This document shows, in pieces, positions 71 to 64,000 of a stretch of 64,000 nt of DNA. Source of the DNA: a virus; IMG/VR virus record IMGVR_UViG_3300034068_000286, positions 1-64,000 of that record; one strand, given 5' to 3'. The number at the start of each line of letters is the position of its first letter. Position 1 is the first letter of the stretch. The position numbers and the translations under genes are program-made. A model generated the notes under the pieces. The model did no database searches. It was not told the origin of the DNA and worked only from the letters and a program-made list of their open reading frames with translations.

Positions 71-715
71 TTACCACTTACGGCACGACCAATAACGTGC
101 TTTTGTTCTTGGACCCGGTGTCTTGCAATTATGTCTGGCCCTAAAACTACGTCTACGAGCTGGGTTTGACTTCTTGATACGCATGTTAGGGTCACCAAAG
201 TTGACTTTCTTAACATTGCCAGTACCGGGATCTTTAACGTATACTTTAAACTTCTTAACATCACCACGCATGGGACGACCTAGTGGTACTTCGCGTCCTT
301 GGTATTGTGCTTCTTTGACCTGTTGTTGTCCATCTGCAGGAGCATCTGTGGGGAAGAACTTGTCAATTTGATCACGCATGGTACTGGTAGTTACATCACC
401 TGTTAGTGCGCTACTGTAACGTGGGTCTTGCGCTTCTCGACTGTTACGTGGAATGTAGCCACTAGATTCTTCTACACAGCTACCCTTTTCTCCACGCTTC
501 TTACCCGGGACTTTCTTGTAACCAGTCCAGCACTTGTCGTAGATTTTACTGTTGCCATGTGCTTCGTCTAATACAGTATAACCTGTGTCACTGAACTCGT
601 AGATGTAACCATCGTCTGTTTCACCTACAATTAAGCCTTCGACCACTGTGTCTGGGTCAGTTTCGAACTCTACAATGTCACCAACCCTGGGTTGGTCTAA
701 ATCACTAATCTTCAT
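71..715 (-). CDS. Conserved phage protein with basic Cys/Arg C-terminal domain
   Basis: 214 residues. The N-terminal ~60 residues are acidic with an SH3/KOW-like look (VGDIVEFETDPDTVV). The last ~70 residues are very basic and contain GDPNMRIKKSNPARRRSF followed by two cysteines and a terminal YWSCRKW. I recall this C-terminal block as recurring in aquatic T4-like phage proteins, without known function; nucleic-acid or virion binding is only a guess. The ATG at 715 lies directly after a hairpin and U-run whose 3' arm supplies the GGAGG ribosome-binding site (723-746). Confidence 0.8.
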   Translation of the reverse strand: MKISDLDQPRVGDIVEFETDPDTVVEGLIVGETDDGYIYEFSDTGYTVLDEAHGNSKIYDKCWTGYKKVPGKKRGEKGSCVEESSGYIPRNSREAQDPRYSSALTGDVTTSTMRDQIDKFFPTDAPADGQQQVKEAQYQGREVPLGRPMRGDVKKFKVYVKDPGTGNVKKVNFGDPNMRIKKSNPARRRSFRARHNCKTPGPRTKARYWSCRKW

Positions 716-722
716 TAAAAAA

Positions 723-746
723 GCCTCCGCAGTATTTAGCAGAGGC
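723..746 (-). promoter_or_regulatory. Composite hairpin: terminator-like stem, late-promoter-like loop, SD in 3' arm
   Basis: On the minus strand an 8-bp stem (GCCTCTGC / GCGGAGGC, one G-U pair) encloses a loop containing TAAATA and is followed by six Ts and then AATG, the start of the gene at 715. The 3' arm contains GGAGG, 8 nt from the ATG, so the hairpin would hide the ribosome-binding site. The octamer GCTAAATA (733-740) resembles a T4-type late promoter. A second copy with different stem pairs lies at 13855-13880. Confidence 0.7.
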
Positions 747-753
747 CGATAGT

Positions 754-1583: not shown

Positions 1584-2597
1584 TTAGTGACCATTCACTA
1601 ATTTTGCAAATTCACCACTGGCCAAGTTCTTGCCCTTGCTTTCACATTGGATATCAAAGTTATCGGCAAAGGTAGCGGCCCAAGAATTTACAGCGTGATT
1701 CCAGTAAAAGTCACTGTGTGCTCTAAGCTTTTGCTTTTTGTAGCCTAGCGATAAAAGGGAGGCCATGTCTGGGAGCTCGTCTCGGGCATGATCATTGAGT
1801 ACATCTTCGCGAGAAACACTATAATGCATAGCAGGACGGACACCGCGCCAACTGTCAATAACCCGTTTAACACGTACATCGTCAGGATGTATATATTCTC
1901 CCGAATTGATCCAGTGGTGATGGATGTCCAAAACGATTGGGCATAAGTCTGCAAGTTCGAGACAAGTTTCAAGATTGTGTGAGTTTTCTTCATTTTCAAT
2001 AGTTATGCAGTTACGAGCCTCTGGGCTTAGCCGATTATATGCCCGACGAATACCTTCGGGTCCTTGTTGTCCACTAATGTGTACATTGATCTTAAAGTCC
2101 TGGAATTTCTGTCCATAGCCCATCCAACGTGCTAGATCAGCGTGATACTCAAATTCCAAGATACTACGCTCTACAATGCCAGGATTTACTGAAGCTAGTA
2201 CGCAGAACTGTCCAGGATGGAAACTGAGTCTAACACCTAGTCTACGTGCGGCTTCGCCCACAGGAGCAAAGATCTTTGCACAATGATCTTGTACGTCCAG
2301 TTGCTTCCAAAACGGAATCCATTCTTCATGTGTGTAGCCCTGTAGCATTTCACTACCCAAGCGCACCATGCGTCTATGTTCAGGTAGTGCGGCCACACGT
2401 TCTACTAGCAATAGGGCCGCACGTGCATTGTGGTTCATAATATCCCACTGCCGTTGTTCAGCCTCGCTCTTGTGTTCACGCAACCAGCGCATGGTGGTAC
2501 TACGACCGTTTAAGTCTCGGTCCACAGCACTGACTTTCATACCAGCTACTTCACTTGGATCATTGATCCACTTGCAACAAAAACCTACTCGGCCCAT
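1584..2597 (-). CDS. uvsE: UV-damage endonuclease UvsE (UVDE family)
   Basis: 337 residues from the ATG at 2597, which has AGGAG upstream; an extension to a start near 2693 would cover the promoter and is rejected. UVDE enzymes are TIM-barrel metal-dependent endonucleases that nick DNA 5' to pyrimidine dimers. Visible family motifs are RLSFHPGQFCVL, INVHISGQQG, CITIENEENS and IVLDIHHHWINSG, which carry the metal-binding His/Glu/Asp residues. A consensus sigma70 promoter lies just upstream, so this is probably an early DNA-repair gene. Full length for the family. Confidence 0.93.
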   Translation of the reverse strand: MGRVGFCCKWINDPSEVAGMKVSAVDRDLNGRSTTMRWLREHKSEAEQRQWDIMNHNARAALLLVERVAALPEHRRMVRLGSEMLQGYTHEEWIPFWKQLDVQDHCAKIFAPVGEAARRLGVRLSFHPGQFCVLASVNPGIVERSILEFEYHADLARWMGYGQKFQDFKINVHISGQQGPEGIRRAYNRLSPEARNCITIENEENSHNLETCLELADLCPIVLDIHHHWINSGEYIHPDDVRVKRVIDSWRGVRPAMHYSVSREDVLNDHARDELPDMASLLSLGYKKQKLRAHSDFYWNHAVNSWAATFADNFDIQCESKGKNLASGEFAKLVNGH

Positions 2598-2619
2598 ACA
2601 TTCTCCTGATGTGTATGCT

Positions 2620-2648
2620 ATTATAAATGAAAACAGCGGTTGTGTCAA
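2620..2648 (-). promoter_or_regulatory. Consensus sigma70 promoter for uvsE
   Basis: TTGACA (2643-2648), 17-bp spacer, TATAAT (2620-2625) on the minus strand: a full consensus match, followed by a short leader with AGGAG. The -35 lies in the loop and 3' arm of a 9-bp hairpin (CAGCGGTTG aca CAACCGCTG, 2633-2653) that is followed by TTTT, so a terminator-like structure overlaps the promoter. Confidence 0.85.
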
Positions 2649-2731
2649 CCGCTGTATATAGTGCCACGAAGCAAGGGAAACGAAAACAGTCAAATATCAG
2701 CAATCAAACATCTGGTATCAAACATACGCTT

Positions 2732-9544: not shown

Positions 9545-12500
9545 TTATTCACTACTCAACAAAAATACCACAACGCAATGAGTTGTTTGGCCAACACCTG
9601 CAGTAGCACCACTGATAGTTTTAGTTAAACCTAATGTTACAATATTGACAGCAGGATCAAATGCGCTAAATGCTGTAGGCGTACCACTTGAGCCGCCACC
9701 TGCCACGTTTCTACCACCAGTTACGTTAAAGCTAGGTGTCACGCCAGTTGTGACATATGAATTACCTGTTCTGTTATAACCATATACCTGTGTATTTAAT
9801 GGAACACCTGTGGCTCCTGTTAGTGTAAATGCCACAGTACATACTGTTGATGTTGCAGTAACAACAGTAGCACTGATTCCGCCATTTAGTACATTTACGC
9901 CAGTTAATGCACCGCTAGCATCATACTCAACTTGAACAGTTGCTCTGAATGTTGTAGATGTACCACTGCCTCCGCCACCACCGCTTGAGCCAATAGTTGT
10001 TGGAGCCCATGCACTACCGTTCCAAGCAAGTGCTTGTCCAGTGGTTGGAGTAGTGTTAGTAACGTCAGCAAGTGCATTTAAATTGCTTTGACCTAAACGT
10101 GTATCAAAACGTCCGCTGGTATAATATAAGTTTGAGCTACCTTCTGTAATATTATCTGTACTTGAGCTTAAACTAAATGTACCTGTTGAACTATTATAAC
10201 TTAAACCAGTTCCAGCAGCCATTGCATTACGAGCAAGTGTGTCACTGAAGTACTTGTTTGTTGTACCTTGATTTAAGTTGTCTGTTGTCTTGGCTGCTAA
10301 TCTTGTATCCCAACGAGTGGCTGTATAATACAAGTTTGTTGAACCTTCTGCTACGTCATCTGTGTTTAATACAACAACGCCTGTTTTAGCATTAACACTT
10401 GATACAGCACCACTGCCACCACTTACACTACTAGGAGTCCACGCACTACCAGTCCAAGTCAATACTTGTCCGTTAGTTGGGGCCGCTGTAACTGTGTCAA
10501 CGTCTAATAATGCATTGATACTGCTTGCACCAATACGAGTATCTGCACGAGCATCAGCTCTGGTGTTTGTGAAGTATAAGTTACTACCTTCTGTGATATA
10601 ACTTGTGTTAGCACGATATTTAATTTGACCTGTTGTATCATCATAACTGATCAAGCTAGTAATATTACTATCACTAATAGAACTCAATGACAGTCTGGCT
10701 CTAGCATCCGTATAGTATAATCTAGTACCTTCTGTGATGTCACTGGTTGTAACAGCATTCAATGCTGTTGTCATTGTAATGTTGCCGCTACCATCAAAAC
10801 TTGTTAAGCCAGTAACTTTACCACTTAAAGTTAATGTGCGAGCAGTTGTCCATTTGTTGGCTTTGTTGGCTAAATCAACTTCTAAATCATAGCCTGGTTG
10901 TGTTGTATTGCCTAGGCCATAGACTTGTACAGCACCTGCCTTGCCATTGACTGTATAACTTGTCCCAGTGGCACCTGTATCACCTGTATCACCTTTGACA
11001 CCCTGAATACCTTGTGGTCCTGTAGCGCCTGTGGCGCCTGTGCTACCTTGTGGACCAACTACATAGCCTGCATTAATTGTGCTTCCATCTGACAATGTGA
11101 CTTGTAAGTAACCACCAGCATCAACTACTACACCACTGTCAGCGACACTTCGTCCGGCTGGACCGGCTGCACCTTGTGGACCTTGTGGACCAACAGTACT
11201 ACCAGCATTGATAGTACTAGCGTCAGTTAATGTAACTTGTAAATTGCCGTCACCATCGACTACTACGCTGTAAATTCCAAGTCCAGTAGCACCAGTAGAA
11301 CCTTGCGGACCCTGGGCACCAGTTGTACCTGTATCACCTTTTGGTCCAATTACACTACCAGCATCGACTGTTGTAGAATCTGTTTTTGTAATGATTAAGT
11401 TGCCACTGCCATTTACTGCGGCGGTTGTGATACCTACACCATTTGATCCATTGGTACCATTTGAGCCAGCAGGTCCTGTGGCGCCAGCTTCACCTGTATC
11501 ACCCTTGATACCTTGTGCGCCAGTTGGGCCAACTACACTACCAGCATCAACTGTTGAGTTGTCTGATTTAACAATCAATAAACGACCAAAGCTGTTTACA
11601 CTTGCAGATGTTACTGATAGGCCTGCAGGTCCTTGCTCTCCGGTGTCGCCTTTGATACCCTGTGTACCTTGGGAGCCTGTGGCACCTTGAGGGCCAATTA
11701 CGCTACCTACATTAATTGTTGTATTATCTTGTTTGGTTAAAACTAATTCACCACTGCCATTAACTAGAGCAGATTTAATACCAGATACATTACCAGCATC
11801 AACAACGCTATTGTCTGTCAATGTTAATTGTAAGCGACCTAATAATGTTACTGTGGCGGCACTGATACTTAAACCTGCTGAGCCTGCGGCACCAGCTGGG
11901 CCAGCGTCACCTGTATCACCTTTGGCTCCACTATTAGCAACTGGTACAAAATTTGTACCATCAAAACCTAGGATTTGCCCTGCACTAATTGCACTTACGT
12001 TTACACCAGAAAGTGAATTTAGTGTTACTTGACTTGCAACTGCATTGGCAAATGTAGGATTGACTGATGAAGATACATTGGCTGTAAATTGGTCATCAAC
12101 ATATTTCTTAGTTGCGGCTTGTAGATCTGCTGTAGGAGCACCTGACAATGTCAATGCACCTGTCATTGTGCCACCTGACAAGTTTACCTTACTGGCTAGG
12201 CTGTTTGTAATTGTTGTAGCAAAACTAGCATCATTGCCTAATGCGGTAGCCAGTTCGTTCAAGGTATCTAATGCCGCACCTGCGCCATTTACTAAATTAC
12301 TTACTTGACCTTGAACATAAGTTTGTGTGGCATAGCCATTGTTGTTTAGATATGTACCAACATCAGTTAATGTGACTCCGCCACCTGTACCACCAACAGA
12401 ACTGATAACACCATTGCTGATAGTAATAGTTGAACCATCAACTTTAACTCCACCAAGTACACTTGTACTTGCTGTTGGCAATGTATAGCTTCCGCCGCCT

Positions 12501-13288
12501 CCACCAGAACCTACGTCACCTGGTTGCCATCTTAGATTAGTCTGACTCCACACAAGAGCTTGGCCGTCTGTAACACCTGTCACATAAGTGTCTGTTAAAT
12601 CTTCCAAGTTCAATGAGCTTAACTGTTGATTGACATAACTTTCTGTTGCATATCCAGCAAGACTAGGAATAGTTGGTTTATTAGTTAGATCTGTATATGA
12701 ACCACTGAATATAGTTGGCTTGTCAGTCAACTGTGAATACGAAGTAACCAGTGTTGGCTTGCCAGTTAGGTCAGCATAAGCACCACTGAATAGAGTTGGC
12801 TTGTTTGTTAAGTCAGCGTAACTACCGCTAAAACTGCTACCAATTATTGTTACGTTGGCAGTGCCATCGTCAACAGTAACACTTGCACCACTTACAAAGT
12901 TGATACTTGTAAAGTTGCCGCGATTTGAAGCATTTTCATATATTGAAACAGAATCTAGTCCACCGGTAATAGTGGCTACGTTGTTAACTACATCAACCCC
13001 TGGACCAACAAAGTTTAATACTGTTGCTGTGCCGCGAGCAGTGCCATCTTCTTTAATGCTGATGGAACCTGGCGTGCCACTTCCTGATCCACCGCCACCG
13101 GCTAGGCTGATCATTAGTTTACCAGTTGCGTCGTCGTAGCTTGTTTGCAGACCGATACTGATATCTGTGCCTACTTCAATTTGACTAGCTACAATATCTT
13201 GGACATCTTCCTCAGTCAAGCCGCCACCGCTGCCTGGCCCGTTAGTTCCACCTTGTAGTTGTCCTCCTGAGGATGCGTTAATCGCCAT
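9545..13288 (-). CDS. Collagen-repeat tail fibre, 1247 aa
   Basis: Start at 13288 with GGAGAAACACA upstream. Residues ~1-440 have repeated 'YADLTNKPTLFSG'-type units and a KKYVDDQF motif. Residues ~453-776 alternate collagen-like Gly-X-Y runs (GPQGPQGAAGPAG) with a ~30-residue beta module of the type 'SxxVNSxGxLxxTxxDxSTxxAGSVVGP', at least six times. Residues ~790-1090 carry 'EGSNLYYT..R.D.R' repeats as in the protein at 6147. The C-terminus (~150 residues, GVNVLNGGISATVV) is probably the tip domain. Gly-X-Y blocks form triple helices, fitting a trimeric adhesin. Confidence 0.85.
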   Translation of the reverse strand: MAINASSGGQLQGGTNGPGSGGGLTEEDVQDIVASQIEVGTDISIGLQTSYDDATGKLMISLAGGGGSGSGTPGSISIKEDGTARGTATVLNFVGPGVDVVNNVATITGGLDSVSIYENASNRGNFTSINFVSGASVTVDDGTANVTIIGSSFSGSYADLTNKPTLFSGAYADLTGKPTLVTSYSQLTDKPTIFSGSYTDLTNKPTIPSLAGYATESYVNQQLSSLNLEDLTDTYVTGVTDGQALVWSQTNLRWQPGDVGSGGGGGSYTLPTASTSVLGGVKVDGSTITISNGVISSVGGTGGGVTLTDVGTYLNNNGYATQTYVQGQVSNLVNGAGAALDTLNELATALGNDASFATTITNSLASKVNLSGGTMTGALTLSGAPTADLQAATKKYVDDQFTANVSSSVNPTFANAVASQVTLNSLSGVNVSAISAGQILGFDGTNFVPVANSGAKGDTGDAGPAGAAGSAGLSISAATVTLLGRLQLTLTDNSVVDAGNVSGIKSALVNGSGELVLTKQDNTTINVGSVIGPQGATGSQGTQGIKGDTGEQGPAGLSVTSASVNSFGRLLIVKSDNSTVDAGSVVGPTGAQGIKGDTGEAGATGPAGSNGTNGSNGVGITTAAVNGSGNLIITKTDSTTVDAGSVIGPKGDTGTTGAQGPQGSTGATGLGIYSVVVDGDGNLQVTLTDASTINAGSTVGPQGPQGAAGPAGRSVADSGVVVDAGGYLQVTLSDGSTINAGYVVGPQGSTGATGATGPQGIQGVKGDTGDTGATGTSYTVNGKAGAVQVYGLGNTTQPGYDLEVDLANKANKWTTARTLTLSGKVTGLTSFDGSGNITMTTALNAVTTSDITEGTRLYYTDARARLSLSSISDSNITSLISYDDTTGQIKYRANTSYITEGSNLYFTNTRADARADTRIGASSINALLDVDTVTAAPTNGQVLTWTGSAWTPSSVSGGSGAVSSVNAKTGVVVLNTDDVAEGSTNLYYTATRWDTRLAAKTTDNLNQGTTNKYFSDTLARNAMAAGTGLSYNSSTGTFSLSSSTDNITEGSSNLYYTSGRFDTRLGQSNLNALADVTNTTPTTGQALAWNGSAWAPTTIGSSGGGGGSGTSTTFRATVQVEYDASGALTGVNVLNGGISATVVTATSTVCTVAFTLTGATGVPLNTQVYGYNRTGNSYVTTGVTPSFNVTGGRNVAGGGSSGTPTAFSAFDPAVNIVTLGLTKTISGATAGVGQTTHCVVVFLLSSE

Positions 13289-13683: not shown

Positions 13684-13848
13684 TTATTCCTTGATTACTT
13701 CAACTATCACATCTTCGCCAACAAGCTGTTGGATAACTGCTTCTAGATTAGATACAGTTTCGTCACCTGCAAGGGTGCCTACACTTTGCGATTCTTTGTG
13801 TAATTTGCTGAGTTTGATTACGATTAGTTCTTCGTGTATTTTTGCCAT
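13684..13848 (-). CDS. Small hypothetical protein, 54 aa
   Basis: MAKIHEELIVIKLSKLHKES... ending EDVIVEVIKE. A strong SD (GGAGG, 7 nt from the ATG) lies in the 3' arm of a hairpin at 13855-13880. Five nt separate it from the next virion gene, so it likely leads the late fibre transcript. Alpha-helical; no family recognised. Confidence 0.75.
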   Translation of the reverse strand: MAKIHEELIVIKLSKLHKESQSVGTLAGDETVSNLEAVIQQLVGEDVIVEVIKE

Positions 13849-13854
13849 TAAAAA

Positions 13855-13880
13855 GCCTCCACACTATTTAGCGTGAAGGC
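13855..13880 (-). promoter_or_regulatory. Composite hairpin, second copy
   Basis: On the minus strand GCCTTCAC/GTGGAGGC form an 8-bp stem around a loop with GCTAAATA (13865-13872), followed by five Ts and AATG. The 3' arm carries GGAGG as the SD of the 54-residue gene. Stem pairs differ from the copy at 723-746 while the fold, loop and distance to the ATG are kept, which supports selection on structure. Confidence 0.7.
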
Positions 13881-13902: not shown

Positions 13903-14529
13903 TTAGGGTTTGCGTATTCGCTCGAAGCGTTCTATACAATCACCGCATGTTAAACGCAATAAAGCGGCATCTTCTGCGTTTTCTAGATATAAATGCAAAG
14001 GTTGTCCCCATCCGTATGCCCTGGGTAACGACTCGTTTTCAATGATATCTTTTAACAAACCTGCCGCATGCCACGCACCATCTAGTGATGCAACTGCCTG
14101 CTTAAAATTAGGGACATGTATTCTTCTAAAATCATCATTGTAACGAATTCTAGCTCTAATAGGATACTTGCCATACCATGGTCTATCCCTAATTACATCA
14201 TGCCCATGCTCAAGTAGTAAATCTTTTGCAGAATTGTTCTCTGGTTTCCAAACTTCTAAAATACGGCCGTCAACATTGTTGATTAGGTCATTTAGTTCTT
14301 CTTCATTTGAAAGAAATATACTTAGGTGTGTCTCTCTTCTAATTCCGGCATCGGGAAACCTAGATTTGCACCAACGCAATAATCTATTAAATTCATCATG
14401 TCGAAGTCTTCGATCTGCATCACTTACTCTACGCCAGCCATAGTGTCCATACAGTTCGGGTTTAATTTCAATGATGGCTTTATAAGGCCACTGTTTCCAA
14501 AATAAACGCTGTGTATTATGAATTTTCAT
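13903..14529 (-). CDS. Conserved hypothetical protein
   Basis: 208 residues from the ATG at 14529, which overlaps the end of clpA by 14 nt. Contains YGHYGWRRVSDADRRLRHDEF and ends with TCGDCIERFERIRKP. Rich in Arg, Trp and His and not membrane associated. I do not recognise the family. It is the last gene before the 54-residue gene and its hairpin. Confidence 0.6.
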   Translation of the reverse strand: MKIHNTQRLFWKQWPYKAIIEIKPELYGHYGWRRVSDADRRLRHDEFNRLLRWCKSRFPDAGIRRETHLSIFLSNEEELNDLINNVDGRILEVWKPENNSAKDLLLEHGHDVIRDRPWYGKYPIRARIRYNDDFRRIHVPNFKQAVASLDGAWHAAGLLKDIIENESLPRAYGWGQPLHLYLENAEDAALLRLTCGDCIERFERIRKP

Positions 14530-16741
14530 TGGCAATTAAAAGTTCTGTACCATTGCTGGTAACATGGTGTTTAGTAATGCCGTCTCGGATAATACGTTTA
14601 GCAATTGGTAATCTAATTTCTTCGTTGATCAAACGTTTCATTGGACGAGCACCCATTGTTTCACTGTAGCCGTGTTCTGCCAAGTAATCAAGTGCTTTAT
14701 CATCATAAGTTACGTACTGGCTTTGAGCATTAAGTTGTTCACGAATTTGATTCATAAACTTGTCGGCAATGCGTCGAGTAACATCTTTCTGTAAGCGATT
14801 AAATTTAACAGTGGCATCTAAACGATTGCGGAACTCTGGACTAAAGAACTTTTTAACTGCTTCATCGCTGGCATCATTGTTAAGTCCACCACCAAAGCCA
14901 ATCACGTTCTTTTCACTGTCAACTGCACCCAAGTTTGATGTCATAATAACAAAGGCATTACGAGCACTGGCTTGTTTGTTATCGCTACCTGTGACAATAC
15001 CATTGTCCATTATACCAAGCAGGACTTGGATAACATCTGGGTGTGCTTTTTCAATTTCGTCAAACAACAGTACACAGTTAGGCACACGCTCTAGTTCGTT
15101 AATCAACTTACCAGAACCAGCTTTGCCCTCGCCATAGCCAACATAGCCAGGTGGGCTACCAATCAGGCTAGCAATCTTGTGCGGCTCTTTGTATTCACTC
15201 ATATCAAAGCGAACCATTTCCATGCCCAAGCCCTCTGCAAGTTGGTTAGCAAGTTCTGTTTTACCAGTACCTGTTGGTCCAACAAACAAGAAGTTGGCCA
15301 TTGGACGATTTACTTCTTTGAGTCCTGACTTGGCAATATACACCATGTTCATTAGGCGTTCAATTGCTTCGTCTTGTCCAAACACGTTTGTACGCATACG
15401 GCTTTCAAGTTCAGTGACAGCAACGTTTTTCTGCTCACCTAGCTGTTCGATTGGCACACGAGTCAAGTCACTAATTTCTTGACGGATGTGATCCTTGGTA
15501 ACATCTGTACCTGCTGGTGAGTTTGTAACACGTAAACGTGCCATTGCCGCATCAAGGATGTCGATTGCTTTGTCAGGCAACTTCTTGTCCAACATATACT
15601 TCATTGACAAGTCAATTGCCAAGTCAATAGATTCTTCACCAACTGCTAAGTTATGGAACTTGGCATACACAGGCATTACTTGACGCAACATCAATTTGGT
15701 TTCTTCAACTGTGGGTTCATTGATGTCAATCTTGGTAAAGCGGCGTAGTAAGGCACGATCCTTCTCAAAGTGTTCACGGAACTCTTCGTAGGTTGTGCTA
15801 CCAATGCAACGTAGCTTGCCTTTTTCTAAACTTGGCTTCAACAAGTTGGCAACGTCCATGCTACCTTGACCGCCTGCACCTGCACCCATGATCATGTGAA
15901 TTTCATCAATGAACAAGATAGCATCATCACGTTCTTCTAGTGCTTCCAACACATGTTGCATACGTTCTTCAAAGTCACCGCGATAACGTGTACCAGCCAG
16001 CAACTTGCCCATGTCTAAACTATAAACAGTTTTCTTCTTTAGCACTTCAGGAACTTCGTTGCGAATAATAGCAACAGCTAGTCCTTCTACAATGGCAGTC
16101 TTACCCACACCAGGTTCACCAACCATGATAGCATTGTTTTTCTTTTTACGAGTAAGTGTTTGTGCAAGACGGAACACTTCCTTCTCACGCCCAATTAGTG
16201 GGTCAATCATTTGCTTTTCAGCACTCTTGTTCAAGTTTGTTGTGTACTTGCTTAGAATCTTTTCGCTGTCACGTTTCTTGGCAGTTTTGCTTTCTTTACT
16301 ACGGCCATCTTTTAAACGACCTATGTGAGCAATGATAGCATCCTTGGTAACACCATTTTTAACTAGGAAAAAGTTAGCATGGCTATTTTTTTCTGCGGCA
16401 ATACTGATCAGCAGATCTAGAGGCTCCATGTGTCCACGACCTGTAAAGATAGCCTGTGTGTAAGCACGATTAAAGCAACGCTCTAGGGTTGCAGTCTTGC
16501 GCGGCTTAGTGATACCTTCTACTCGAATATCTTCTTGCTCACGCAACCATTGATCAATTTCATCTTTGAGAAGTCCAACGTCAAGTTCTAGTTCAGTGAG
16601 AACATCTTTTACTTCTTCTTCGTCTAGCATCACACGTAGGATATGCTCCAGCGTGACATATTCATGTTCTCTGTTGAGTGCTTCTTGGAAAGCACGAGCA
16701 ATGACTTCGTTGATACGACCGTTGTTTTCTTCTTGACTCAT
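14516..16741 (-). CDS. clpA: ClpA-type AAA+ unfoldase
   Basis: 741 residues from the ATG at 16741 (SD AAAAGG); an upstream extension would overlap dnaJ and is rejected. Order: Clp_N domain (residues ~1-140, with AFQEALNREHEYVTLEHIL), AAA-1 with Walker A GEPGVGKTAIVEG and Walker B ILFIDEIHMIMGAG, AAA-2 with Walker A GPTGTGKTELANQ, then FSPEFRNRLD and a Clp D2-small domain. KNVIGFGGG in D2 is the IGF loop that docks on ClpP. No ClpP was seen here, so host ClpP is the probable partner; ClpS is encoded at 59412. A late-type AATAAATA lies 20 nt upstream. Confidence 0.95.
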   Translation of the reverse strand: MSQEENNGRINEVIARAFQEALNREHEYVTLEHILRVMLDEEEVKDVLTELELDVGLLKDEIDQWLREQEDIRVEGITKPRKTATLERCFNRAYTQAIFTGRGHMEPLDLLISIAAEKNSHANFFLVKNGVTKDAIIAHIGRLKDGRSKESKTAKKRDSEKILSKYTTNLNKSAEKQMIDPLIGREKEVFRLAQTLTRKKKNNAIMVGEPGVGKTAIVEGLAVAIIRNEVPEVLKKKTVYSLDMGKLLAGTRYRGDFEERMQHVLEALEERDDAILFIDEIHMIMGAGAGGQGSMDVANLLKPSLEKGKLRCIGSTTYEEFREHFEKDRALLRRFTKIDINEPTVEETKLMLRQVMPVYAKFHNLAVGEESIDLAIDLSMKYMLDKKLPDKAIDILDAAMARLRVTNSPAGTDVTKDHIRQEISDLTRVPIEQLGEQKNVAVTELESRMRTNVFGQDEAIERLMNMVYIAKSGLKEVNRPMANFLFVGPTGTGKTELANQLAEGLGMEMVRFDMSEYKEPHKIASLIGSPPGYVGYGEGKAGSGKLINELERVPNCVLLFDEIEKAHPDVIQVLLGIMDNGIVTGSDNKQASARNAFVIMTSNLGAVDSEKNVIGFGGGLNNDASDEAVKKFFSPEFRNRLDATVKFNRLQKDVTRRIADKFMNQIREQLNAQSQYVTYDDKALDYLAEHGYSETMGARPMKRLINEEIRLPIAKRIIRDGITKHHVTSNGTELLIANENS

Positions 16742-40543: not shown

Positions 40544-41302
40544 TTATCGAATGTTAGTATTGTTGTTCAATGGATTGGCCGTTTGTGTGCCAGTTCCAAC
40601 ATTGATAGCTTGGTTAGTAGCCTGAATGCCTTGCGCTAGTGAGTAAATAGCGTGGTACAACTGGCCATACTGTTGCTGTTGCTGAGTTTGTTGTTGCATC
40701 TGATTGATGTTATTAGTTGTAGTAACTTCAACACCACGAGTACGCTCGGCATTATCAAAGCGATTCTGCAAAGCAATAACTGCGGCATTAGCATCAGATA
40801 GTTGACGATTCAACATTGCTTCGTATTGTGATGTAATCAATGCACGAGTTTTGTCACCGTCATCATAAACTGCACGTTGTGTTTCATTAGCTGTTGTCAT
40901 CAAGTTAGTATTGATGGTGTTCAACTGTTGTGCAAGTACCATTGCATTTGCATTAACTGCTTCTCTTGTGCCGTCAATACGAGCTGCCAAACTGCCTGTG
41001 ACATTGTTCAATTGTGATGTGATAGCCGCTGATTGGTTAGCTTGACTGCCTTCCATTGCCGCTGTGCCAACTGCCACTGCTTTGTCAACTGCTCCAACGC
41101 TGGCCATCAAGTCCATGTTAGCTTGAACTTGCTCAGGTGGACTGCGTAAAACTGCTCCGCCTGCACCATCGTTGCCTAATAGATTGCCGTTGTTACGTAG
41201 TAATGATCCTAAAATCAAACCACCAATCAGGCCACCGCCTACGCCCATGCCACCGCCGCCAAGGATGTCGCCACCGCCTGTTACTGTAGATAAATCTGCC
41301 AT
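40544..41302 (-). CDS. Gly-rich and coiled-coil protein, 252 aa
   Basis: Residues 1-55 are Gly-rich and hydrophobic (GGGMGVGGGLIGGLILGSLL); the rest is a long Ala/Gln/Asn-rich coiled coil including a poly-Gln run (QMQQQTQQQQQ). SD TAGGAG. Virion-associated or scaffold-like role is possible; similar proteins occur in T4-like aquatic phages. Ended by a strong terminator. Confidence 0.6.
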   Translation of the reverse strand: MADLSTVTGGGDILGGGGMGVGGGLIGGLILGSLLRNNGNLLGNDGAGGAVLRSPPEQVQANMDLMASVGAVDKAVAVGTAAMEGSQANQSAAITSQLNNVTGSLAARIDGTREAVNANAMVLAQQLNTINTNLMTTANETQRAVYDDGDKTRALITSQYEAMLNRQLSDANAAVIALQNRFDNAERTRGVEVTTTNNINQMQQQTQQQQQYGQLYHAIYSLAQGIQATNQAINVGTGTQTANPLNNNTNIR

Positions 41303-41323
41303 TTTTTAATTTCTCCTATTTAA

Positions 41324-41348
41324 ATATGAGACTTAGAAGTTCTCATAT
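41324..41348. repeat. Inverted repeat upstream of the Gly-rich gene
   Basis: ATATGAGA and TCTCATAT form an 8-bp stem with a 9-nt loop just upstream of the SD of the gene at 41302; no T-run, so a leader hairpin or operator is more likely than a terminator. Confidence 0.5.
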
Positions 41349-41418
41349 CTACTTAGGGGGAAATCTTAATAGTAATGGTAGCTTTTAGTATTACGGTATA
41401 CTCCAGTACTAGAAAAAG

Positions 41419-42123
41419 TTATGCTCGCAATCCAAATTCTGAACCAGACAATGCCAATTGTGTTCTGTTGCGTACCTTGTATGCTTTTAGGATTGCGCTG
41501 ATATGGACCTTGACTGTACTTTCACTTATGTTTAATATTTGTGCTATCTTTTTATTACTCAATCCGCGTTTACACACTAGGTCAAAAATTTCGGTTTGTC
41601 TATTTGTCAATGCAATTTCATCTTTGGCATTTTTTGTTTTTATTACAGCGCCTGGTAACTGATCTAAAATATGTTTAGGCCAATATGATATTTGATTAAC
41701 CAGCATTGTCAGGCCCTGAGTCATTTCACTTATTCCAAATGATTCAGCCGATGGCACTATTCCTACCAATGACGTTCGTTTTAAATCCCTTATCACCGCA
41801 TATGGTGTTTCCTTATCTATACTAACGCCAATGGGAATCGTTCTTCCTGGTGTGGTAAATTTGATAAGTGTTTCAAGCATTGACACAAATTCAAAAATAG
41901 TAGTACCCTCTTGCACAAGCATACCAATATGAAATATAATTTGAGATGGCTCTGAACTTAACACATCACTGAGATCCTTCCAGTGACCACAAAACTTGGT
42001 TTTAAATACAGCATCTTCTCTTGTTAGTAGTGCCAGAGTTGTTGCTGGTATTTGTGTTTCCCAGTCTTTACGAAAATAAACACTTACTGGTTTATGATTT
42101 AAATTTGGTATTACGTTTGACAT
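41419..42123 (-). CDS. LuxR/NarL-type regulator with degenerate receiver
   Basis: 234 residues. The C-terminal ~65 residues are a GerE-type HTH: LTNRQTEIFDLVCKRGLSNK then KIAQILNISESTVKVHISAI. The N-terminal ~150 residues follow a receiver-like fold (SQIIFHIGMLVQEGTTIFEF, RTSLVGIVPSA) but lack the phospho-accepting Asp, so activity is probably not phosphorylation dependent. Possible regulator of phage late/structural genes or host genes. The 11-mer TACTCCAGTAC occurs on both sides of the gene. Confidence 0.85.
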   Translation of the reverse strand: MSNVIPNLNHKPVSVYFRKDWETQIPATTLALLTREDAVFKTKFCGHWKDLSDVLSSEPSQIIFHIGMLVQEGTTIFEFVSMLETLIKFTTPGRTIPIGVSIDKETPYAVIRDLKRTSLVGIVPSAESFGISEMTQGLTMLVNQISYWPKHILDQLPGAVIKTKNAKDEIALTNRQTEIFDLVCKRGLSNKKIAQILNISESTVKVHISAILKAYKVRNRTQLALSGSEFGLRA

Positions 42124-42181
42124 TGTTATGCTTTCTTGTACCAATACTTAAAAGCATATAAGCATAATAGTGGTAAGCAAT

Positions 42182-47818: not shown

Positions 47819-48376
47819 ATGATCCACGATTCACAATATCCAGCTTTACTACTAAATGCTGACTTTCAACCGGTCCACATGCATCCTTTGAGTACTATCT
47901 CTTGGCAGGATGCAATTAAGTCTGTCTTTACGGACCGTGTAAATGTTGTAGCTGAATACGATATAGAGGTCCATAGTGCTACACGAAGCTGGAGACTACC
48001 CAGTGTAGTGGCCCTAAAAGACTATGTCAAGCGAGACCAAACTCCTACATTCAGTCGTTACAATGTTTATCTTAGAGACCAGTTCACTTGTCAATATTGT
48101 GGTGGCGAATTTGAAGCCAAGCACTTGACATTTGATCACGTTATCCCAAGAGCACATGGTGGTATCAGTTCGTGGCAAAATGTTGTTGCGGCATGTAGCC
48201 CTTGTAATCATCGCAAAGGGGCGAAGTTACCGCAGGAGGCTAAAATGTTTCCGTTAACAAAACCCGTGCCACCTAGTGCATGGGATTTGTATGCACGTGG
48301 TAAACGCAGGCCTCAAAGCAATCTCCATGAAACGTGGAGAGATTATTTGTACTGGGATATTGAGTTAGATGCTTAG
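47819..48376 (+). CDS. HNH endonuclease
   Basis: 185 residues, plus strand. FTCQYCGGEF and ACSPCNHRKGAKLP provide two CxxC zinc pairs, and LTFDHVIPRAHGGISSWQNV is the HNH core (DH...N). This zinc-ribbon HNH type is found in phages as restriction-like, homing or packaging-linked nucleases. Convergent with the 2OG oxygenase gene, overlapping by 4 nt. No clear promoter upstream on this strand. Confidence 0.88.
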   Translation: MIHDSQYPALLLNADFQPVHMHPLSTISWQDAIKSVFTDRVNVVAEYDIEVHSATRSWRLPSVVALKDYVKRDQTPTFSRYNVYLRDQFTCQYCGGEFEAKHLTFDHVIPRAHGGISSWQNVVAACSPCNHRKGAKLPQEAKMFPLTKPVPPSAWDLYARGKRRPQSNLHETWRDYLYWDIELDA

Positions 48377-48969
48377 TACTCGCCAGGAGCATCAACAAGG
48401 CCAATTGGGTTAATTCCTAGTTGCCTTGATTCTTGCCATTTGCTTTCGGGCATGATGTCCAAGATCAAGTGAGTTCTAAACTCTGTGCCTCTGTTGGTTG
48501 CACTATGAGTCACACGATTGTTTAGCTCATACAGATAGCCCATTTCCATGTGATACTCTTCAGTTTTCCAAAGTTGTACACACTGGTCGTTGGTATAAAT
48601 TGGCACATGCAAACGCACACAATTGTCATGGAACCACTGCGGATCTTTATGCCAACCTAGTGTTACTCCTGGAAGTAGCGTAGCAACTTCACCACGAATC
48701 CATTTGTATCCTGCAAATCTAGGCAAGGTCAAGATCCAGTCTAACAGTGGCTTACTTGCTCTTAGTATCTCTGTTTGTTCTGGTGTGTAGTTTTTATTGG
48801 GCTTGCTGATAGGGAACGGATATTCTACTAACTTACCATCAGATAGGACTTTTTCAAACCGGTCATATGTTCCATTGCCCCAGTTTGCTTTTTTGCAGGC
48901 TTCAATGATTGGGTCTACTAGGCCAGCATCAATAGTTTCTACCACACGATAATTTAATTCAAATAGCAT
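48373..48969 (-). CDS. 2OG/Fe(II) oxygenase, Asp/Asn beta-hydroxylase type (1)
   Basis: 198 residues. LGWHKDPQWFHDNCVRLHVP gives the HxD pair (H107, D109); ELNNRVTHSATNRGTEFRTH gives the distal His (155) and 2OG-binding Arg (165). The pattern (VTHS..N.G...RTHLI.D) resembles the aspartyl/asparaginyl beta-hydroxylase branch and is closely similar to the partial gene at 63465. Substrate unknown. Confidence 0.85.
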   Translation of the reverse strand: MLFELNYRVVETIDAGLVDPIIEACKKANWGNGTYDRFEKVLSDGKLVEYPFPISKPNKNYTPEQTEILRASKPLLDWILTLPRFAGYKWIRGEVATLLPGVTLGWHKDPQWFHDNCVRLHVPIYTNDQCVQLWKTEEYHMEMGYLYELNNRVTHSATNRGTEFRTHLILDIMPESKWQESRQLGINPIGLVDAPGEY

Positions 48970-63464: not shown

Positions 63465-64000
63465 TTAAATGTGTGTCCTTGCTGGGAAGCAGTGTGGTAA
63501 ATCGTCAAATAAAGGTGCTTCAATTCTTTTTCCATCGACATCATAGTCGTATGTTTGATTCTTGCTTTGTGGGTTTGGTACTTTGCCGTACGGATCATAG
63601 AGTTCGCACATACGGTCATAGTAATTTTTTGGCATTACATCAATGATCAAATGTGTTCTCCAAGTTTCCCCATAGTTTACTGCGGTGTGAATAATTTTGT
63701 TGTTTAATTCCCAGACTTCTCCAGGTTCAATGTGGTCTCGCATTCCACCATTATTTAAATCATAACTGTAATGATACAACCAGCATTCAGCATTAGTACT
63801 AATTGCAATATTGTATCGGCGAGCATAGCGTTGATTAAATCTAGTATCAGTATGAAATACTGTATCACCTTCGCGTGGCCGCATTCTTGCAATATCTGCT
63901 TGTACAACAACCGGGTCAGCAATGCCAGTTAAACTGGCCAGGTATTCGCATTTTGACTTTAGTATATTATCCCACATGTCCTGTATACCCGGTGGGTAGC
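63465..64000 (-). CDS. Asp/Asn hydroxylase-type 2OG oxygenase (8), running off the right edge
   Basis: At least 178 codons; the reading frame stays open to the window edge beyond the ATG at 63977 (…YPPGIQD before it), so the gene likely starts outside the window. DTVFHTDTRFNQRYARRYNI (HxD) and ELNNKIIHTAVNYGETWRTH (His, Arg) give the triad, and the order matches the protein at 48373 closely, making these paralogues. Confidence 0.82.
   Translation of the reverse strand, partial: YPPGIQDMWDNILKSKCEYLASLTGIADPVVVQADIARMRPREGDTVFHTDTRFNQRYARRYNIAISTNAECWLYHYSYDLNNGGMRDHIEPGEVWELNNKIIHTAVNYGETWRTHLIIDVMPKNYYDRMCELYDPYGKVPNPQSKNQTYDYDVDGKRIEAPLFDDLPHCFPARTHI

What the first reader, a model, noticed from the sequence alone, without database searches (positions are those of the whole stretch)
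723..746. Hairpin that combines terminator, late-promoter-like loop and Shine-Dalgarno
Both this site and 13855-13880 have an 8-bp stem, a loop containing GCTAAATA, a U-run and then AATG, with GGAGG in the 3' arm. Read-through RNA would either terminate or hide the SD; RNA starting from the loop octamer would carry only the free 3' arm. This would switch the gene off in early and on in late transcription. The two copies differ in stem pairs but keep pairing.
Basis: partly seen in the sequence, partly recalled or inferred. Interest (0 to 1): 0.75.

Follow-up and report, generated by a model that had tools for sequence, protein, structure and literature searches.

The report
Phage terminator-promoter-ribosome-site hairpin
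In T4-related environmental phages, one ~35-base hairpin in front of a late gene appears to end the transcript arriving from upstream, hide that gene's ribosome-binding site in any RNA that reads through, and hold the late promoter that makes a fresh, open message; the principle is known from T4 lysozyme, but the built-in terminator and the wide use are new here.

Summary
On the minus strand, hairpins at 747-722 and 13882-13853 (MFE -16.9 and -19.6 kcal/mol, z -5.5 and -6.0) carry TAAATA at the apex and the Shine-Dalgarno GGAGG in the 3' arm, followed by U6 or U5 and AATG. Shuffles of the window never reproduce the full combination (0 in 300; observed 2). GCTAAATA matches the Aeh1-type T4 late promoter. 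A gp55-like late sigma factor occurs in the four largest related records. A 285-kb relative has both hairpins before the same two gene families. Across viral contigs the combination precedes 24 protein clusters, among them head-tail connector, terminase and amidase. TAAATA and GGAGG are constant while the other stem pairs covary. The predicted +1 falls on the Shine-Dalgarno itself. Relatives show the functions separated or paired differently (T4 gene e: promoter plus hidden SD, no terminator). The mechanism is therefore T4 gene e-type control with a terminator built in: a new variant of a known kind. No transcription or translation data exist. An early/late switch is less certain than insulation plus late restart, because the operon upstream of site 2 may itself be late.

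The parts
722..747 (-). Site 1 hairpin: 5' arm 747-739, loop TAAATACT 738-731, 3' arm 730-722
   Evidence: 9 bp, -16.9 kcal/mol, z -5.5
733..740 (-). Site 1 late-promoter octamer GCTAAATA (-13 to -6), Aeh1-type variant
   Evidence: consensus and position from PMC1524935 and PMC2988020
724..728 (-). Site 1 Shine-Dalgarno GGAGG, fully paired in the long RNA; predicted +1 at 727 (inferred)
   Evidence: unpaired probability 0.00 in long RNA; truncated RNA has no structure
717..722 (-). Site 1 U-run (T6) directly after the stem: intrinsic terminator tail
   Evidence: terminator-like hit 747-722
71..715 (-). Gene under site 1, 214 aa (MKISDLDQP...), C-terminal phrog_7595 domain, unknown function
   Evidence: composite hairpin also before relatives L064, L019, L021, L298
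13853..13882 (-). Site 2 hairpin: 13-bp fold, apex within TAAATA
   Evidence: -19.6 kcal/mol, z -6.0
13865..13872 (-). Site 2 late-promoter octamer GCTAAATA
13856..13860 (-). Site 2 Shine-Dalgarno GGAGG; predicted +1 at 13859 (inferred)
13850..13854 (-). Site 2 U-run (T5)
13684..13848 (-). Gene under site 2, 54 aa (MAKIHEEL...), first gene of an operon reaching a 1247-aa tail fibre gene (9545-13288)
   Evidence: same gene order in 285-kb relative G001
13903..14535 (-). Upstream co-directional gene (210 aa) whose transcript would end at site 2

Best explanation
Each hairpin is a compact stop-and-restart element of a T4-related phage. (1) RNA arriving from the upstream gene folds the GC-rich hairpin and tends to end at the U-run, so it acts as an intrinsic terminator (inferred from sequence). 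(2) RNA that reads through keeps the hairpin, in which GGAGG is fully paired, so the downstream gene is poorly translated (folding computed, effect inferred). (3) Late in infection gp55-RNA polymerase recognises GCTAAATA at the hairpin apex and starts about 6 nt downstream, on the Shine-Dalgarno. The new RNA lacks the 5' arm, cannot fold or terminate there, and is translated from an open leader of about 15 nt (inferred). The gene, and at site 2 the tail-fibre operon behind it, is then made only from its own late promoter. It works like T4 gene e control with a terminator added.
For: Both sites fold strongly, with SD unpaired probability 0.00; RNAs from the predicted +1 have no structure. 0 of 300 shuffles match the combination. 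GCTAAATA is the Aeh1-type late promoter; the same octamer precedes genes of relative G001 without hairpins (90870, 54814). gp55-like sigma in G001-G004. G001 has both elements before the same gene families, with the same gene order at site 2. The composite recurs before 24 protein clusters, SD 4-5 nt after TAAATA in 50 of 61. Swapping 5' arms among 33 elements raises mean MFE from -18.1 to -12.9 kcal/mol (sd 0.43, 0 of 300 reach native). Inner stem pairs switch among A-T, G-C, C-G and T-A while TAAATA and GGAGG stay constant. T5 spacers are confined to these two genes in the record. Relatives of the site 2 gene have the functions split: UUCG-loop hairpin with T-run, then CTAAATA, then free SD (L249, L253). 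The same scanner recovers T4 gene e and I-TevII.
Against: No 5' ends, 3' ends or protein data. The stretch after TAAATA is GC-rich (CTGCGGAGG, GTGTGGAGG), whereas T4 late promoters are AT-rich there (PMC2988020), so the promoter may be weak. Loops longer than the usual 4 nt and U5-6 may terminate only partly. The predicted +1 at both sites leaves GAGG rather than GGAGG. The 86.5-kb record itself holds no detected gp55 (it is a fragment). Eight of 34 relatives of the site 2 gene have neither promoter nor hairpin upstream, and most phrog_7595 relatives lack the hairpin (2 of 38 have it). The operon upstream of site 2 may itself be late.
Confidence: 0.7

Rival explanations
1. Terminator plus late promoter only: the hairpin insulates operons and restarts transcription; SD burial is a by-product of using the same G-rich arm.
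For: In L249/L253/L254/L265 terminator and promoter are kept but the SD is not in the terminator hairpin. Isolates ACG-2014f (CCACCTCTAAATACTAGGGGTGGTTTTTT) and avDM6 (GCCTCCCCTAAATATGGGTGAGGCTTTTTT, SD after the U-run) have a TAAATA terminator with no GGAG in the arm. The operon upstream of site 2 may be late too.
Against: GGAG in the 3' arm with a start codon 5-9 nt later recurs in 24 protein clusters (found with patterns that required GGAG, so not an unbiased count); T4 e and the G001 connector gene bury the SD with no terminator at all.
Confidence: 0.2
2. Plain T4 gene e-type translational switch: late promoter in a hairpin that hides the SD; the U-run is only an unstructured spacer and no termination occurs.
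For: T4 e has the same layout, CCTTCTA-TAAATACT-TAGGAGG, with no U-run.
Against: T5 spacers are otherwise absent in the record and rare in G001, yet occur exactly where the hairpin is; split relatives retain a terminator at this place.
Confidence: 0.07
3. Ordinary intrinsic terminator whose loop happens to contain TAAATA, or a loop bound by a protein; no promoter.
For: Terminator-like by scan at site 1.
Against: TAAATA is kept while stems change (the searches required TAAATA, but the relatives found by protein did not and also keep it); it also precedes genes without a hairpin in the same genomes; 22 of 30 window copies lie on the gene strand, 8 of these 10-35 nt before an ORF start versus 0 on the other strand; gp55-like sigma present in relatives.
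Confidence: 0.03

Closest known systems
T4 gene e (lysozyme) leader, and the similar soc, gene 49, I-TevI/II/III, segB and Aeh1 mobE leaders
   Same: Hairpin in long early RNA pairs the SD; a late promoter in the 5' part of the hairpin yields short RNA without the 5' arm (PMC3014915 section 29; PMC2988022). T4 e even has the loop TAAATACT and SD TAGGAGG.
   Different: The T4 e hairpin runs into the start codon with no U-run; here a U5-6 tail turns the same hairpin into a terminator-like element, and it precedes structural, packaging and tail-fibre genes.
T4-type late promoter, Aeh1 variant ((A/G)CTAAATA)
   Same: Octamer GCTAAATA and its distance to the predicted start (PMC1524935, PMC2988020).
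   Different: Promoter lies inside a hairpin; the downstream stretch is GC-rich.
Intrinsic (rho-independent) terminator
   Same: GC-rich stem followed directly by T5-T6.
   Different: Loop of 6-8 nt carries a promoter box; the U-run also serves as the SD-AUG spacer of the next gene.
PeSL cassettes of T4-type phages (promoter early stem-loop; recalled from memory, paper not read)
   Same: A promoter and a stem-loop combined as a compact regulatory module between genes.
   Different: There an early promoter lies beside a stem-loop; here a late promoter lies inside it and the SD is part of the stem.

Membership tests
T4 gene e-type late switch | SD and/or AUG paired in RNA that starts upstream | tested here: met
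   SD unpaired probability 0.00 at both sites (computed fold)
T4 gene e-type late switch | Late promoter placed so that late RNA lacks the 5' arm | tested here: met
   GCTAAATA at apex; predicted +1 in the 3' arm; the start site itself is not mapped
T4 gene e-type late switch | Reduced translation from long RNA, mapped late 5' ends | not testable with these tools
   needs infection RNA and reporters
T4-type late promoter | TATAAATA or known variant at -13 to -6 | tested here: met
   Aeh1-type GCTAAATA
T4-type late promoter | AT-rich stretch directly downstream of the box (a tendency in T4, not an absolute rule) | tested here: not met
   site 1 CTGCGGAGG, site 2 GTGTGGAGG
T4-type late promoter | gp55-type sigma encoded by the phage | tested here: inconclusive
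   found in G001-G004 (E 1e-21 to 4e-88), not in the 86.5-kb fragment that holds the window
Intrinsic terminator | GC-rich stem directly followed by U-run | tested here: met
   site 1; site 2; missed by the scan, probably because its stem absorbs part of the U-run
Intrinsic terminator | RNA 3' ends at the U-run | not testable with these tools
   needs Term-seq or in vitro transcription
Rfam RNA families | match to a curated family | tested here: not met
   no hit

The most novel reading that the evidence does not exclude
A standard trifunctional relay of T4-related environmental phages: one ~35-bp element ends the upstream transcript, silences read-through RNA and restarts transcription with an SD base as the first RNA base, and it has arisen or spread repeatedly in front of late genes across several phage lineages.
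Probability: 0.4. Interest if true: 0.75.

Novelty: new variant of a known kind. Interest (0 to 1): 0.6.

Why it matters
It shows a terminator, a promoter and a ribosome-binding site compressed into one sequence in which most bases serve two or three roles, and it extends T4 gene e logic from lysis and homing genes to connector, packaging and tail-fibre genes of uncultured phages. It gives a DNA signature for late genes in phages whose late promoters are hard to find: pelagimyophage late promoter prediction was reported unsuccessful (PMC7029224). Isolated cyanophages S-CAM1 and S-CAM3 carry it, so it can be tested.

Tried and rejected
Rfam gave no family. tblastn of the 54-aa protein found no isolate. 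The composite pattern was absent from T4, HTVC008M, S-PM2, syn9, C48C1, Melnitz, Aeh1 and immuto; single pattern hits in P-SSM2 and KVP40 have no flanking stem. Upstream regions of the connector gene in Atu_ph07, Phosso and PA5oct show no such hairpin, nor do S-RIM44, S-RIM32 and Sf-CH11 before the relatives of the S-CAM1 gene. The LuxR/sigma region 4-like protein at 41419-42144 was considered as a late sigma and set aside (best match GerE). Hits of the loose pattern without matching arms were treated as chance. Literature searches in the open-access library found no description of the three-part element; most subscription papers are not held, so absence is weak.

Full report
What is there. 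The window is part of an 86,543-base IMG/VR virus record. Genes run mostly on the minus strand. On that strand, 747-713 reads GGCCTCTGC TAAATACT GCGGAGGC TTTTTT A ATG and leads into a 214-aa gene (71-715); 13881-13846 reads AAGCCTTCACGC TAAATA GTGTGGAGGCTT TTT A ATG and leads into a 54-aa gene (13684-13848). RNA folding gives -16.9 and -19.6 kcal/mol, z-scores -5.5 and -6.0 against shuffles, with the SD in the stem.

Chance. In 300 dinucleotide shuffles of the window, hairpins of at least 8 bp around TAAATA arise about 1.3 times per shuffle, with SD and start codon 0.01 times, and with a U5 as well never; the window has two. Among 116 SD-ATG events in the whole record (overlapping SD motifs counted separately), only these two genes have T5 in the spacer. 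So the U-run belongs to the hairpin rather than to ribosome sites of this phage in general.

Promoter. T4 late promoters are TATAAATA at -13 to -6; Aeromonas phage Aeh1 uses (A/G)CTAAATA (PMC1524935, PMC2988020). GCTAAATA fits the latter. In the window TAAATA occurs 22 times on the gene strand and 8 on the other; 8 and 0 respectively lie 10-35 nt before an ORF start. In relative G001 (285 kb) the same octamer precedes genes with no hairpin (90870, 54814). A gp55-like late sigma factor is present in the four largest related records; the G001 protein matches phrog_12791 'sigma factor for late transcription' at 5.6e-45. The window's record is a fragment and has no detected copy. With T4 spacing, +1 is the sixth base after TAAATA, i.e. 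window 727 and 13859, the second G of GGAGG. Across 61 distinct composite elements the SD begins 4 or 5 nt after TAAATA in 50, so the predicted start falls on the first or second base of the SD. RNA from there has no predicted structure.

Conservation. The pattern TAAATA-N1-8-GGAGGCTTTTT-N0-5-ATG gave 58 stretches in the viral collection, many before relatives of the same two genes. Of 34 relatives of the 54-aa protein, found by protein and not by the pattern, 17 loci (12 distinct upstream sequences) have the composite hairpin; four have a separate UUCG-loop hairpin with a T-run, then CTAAATA, then an SD outside that hairpin; eight have neither element and sit directly behind another gene; five have other arrangements. 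G001 has both window elements, and the gene order around site 2 is conserved: Clp-like ATPase, 209/210 aa, element, 54 aa, 122 aa, tail fibre. Pair tables show inner stem positions switching among A-T, G-C, C-G, T-A and G-U while TAAATA and the SD stay constant; swapping 5' arms among 33 elements weakens the mean fold from -18.1 to -12.9 kcal/mol, with 0 of 300 swaps reaching the native value. Related sequences are among the 33, so this is not a formal probability. The scans required SD bases next to TAAATA, so they cannot show how often TAAATA hairpins occur without an SD.

Modularity. The functions occur apart and in pairs. T4 gene e and the G001 connector gene (95416, where even the AUG is paired) have promoter plus hidden SD without a U-run. 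ACG-2014f and Aeromonas phage avDM6 have terminator plus TAAATA loop with no GGAG in the arm. L249 and L253 have all functions side by side. The window sites, G001, and isolated Synechococcus phages S-CAM1 and S-CAM3 have all three in one hairpin. This is the strongest argument that the combination is functional: each part stands on its own elsewhere.

Mechanism. Shown: sequence, computed folding, conservation, covariation, related sigma factor. Inferred: termination, late initiation on the SD, low translation of read-through RNA. The known precedent is T4 gene e, where long early RNAs hide the SD and late RNAs lack the 5' arm, with about 100-fold less lysozyme from structured RNA (PMC3014915). 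The addition here is the U-run. At site 2 the upstream Clp operon has its own late-like promoter (16767), so the element may mainly separate two late operons; at site 1 the timing of the upstream genes is unknown. Weak points: GC-rich melt region, loop longer than in classical terminators, a GAGG-only SD if +1 is exact, and no expression data.

Verdict. A real, conserved, widely used element; a new variant of a known kind; worth a direct test in S-CAM1.

Noticed in passing
window 41320-41350 (-), before gene 40544-41302: A hairpin (AATATGAGA-ACTTCTAAG-TCTCATATT) abuts TTTAAATA-GGAG-ATG: another tight hairpin/late-box/SD arrangement, here side by side.
   Followed up: no
G001 95416 (-), L304 14642-15394: A 16-bp hairpin around TAAATA buries both SD and AUG of the head-tail connector gene (phrog_211), without a U-run.
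   Followed up: partly
L004 3175-15826 (record about 67.2-79.8 kb): Run of large genes including five radical-SAM-like proteins next to a Nol-like carbamoyltransferase: looks like a biosynthetic or modification cluster carried by the phage.
   Followed up: no
window 1584-2693 (-): UV-damage endonuclease-like protein; nearest isolates are Erwinia/Dickeya jumbo phages (46% identity).
   Followed up: no
window 41419-42144 (-): Protein with a LuxR/sigma region 4-like helix-turn-helix at its C terminus; possible phage regulator.
   Followed up: no
window 48373-48969 and 63465-63977 (-): Two aspartyl/asparaginyl beta-hydroxylase-like proteins (the second match is weak).
   Followed up: no
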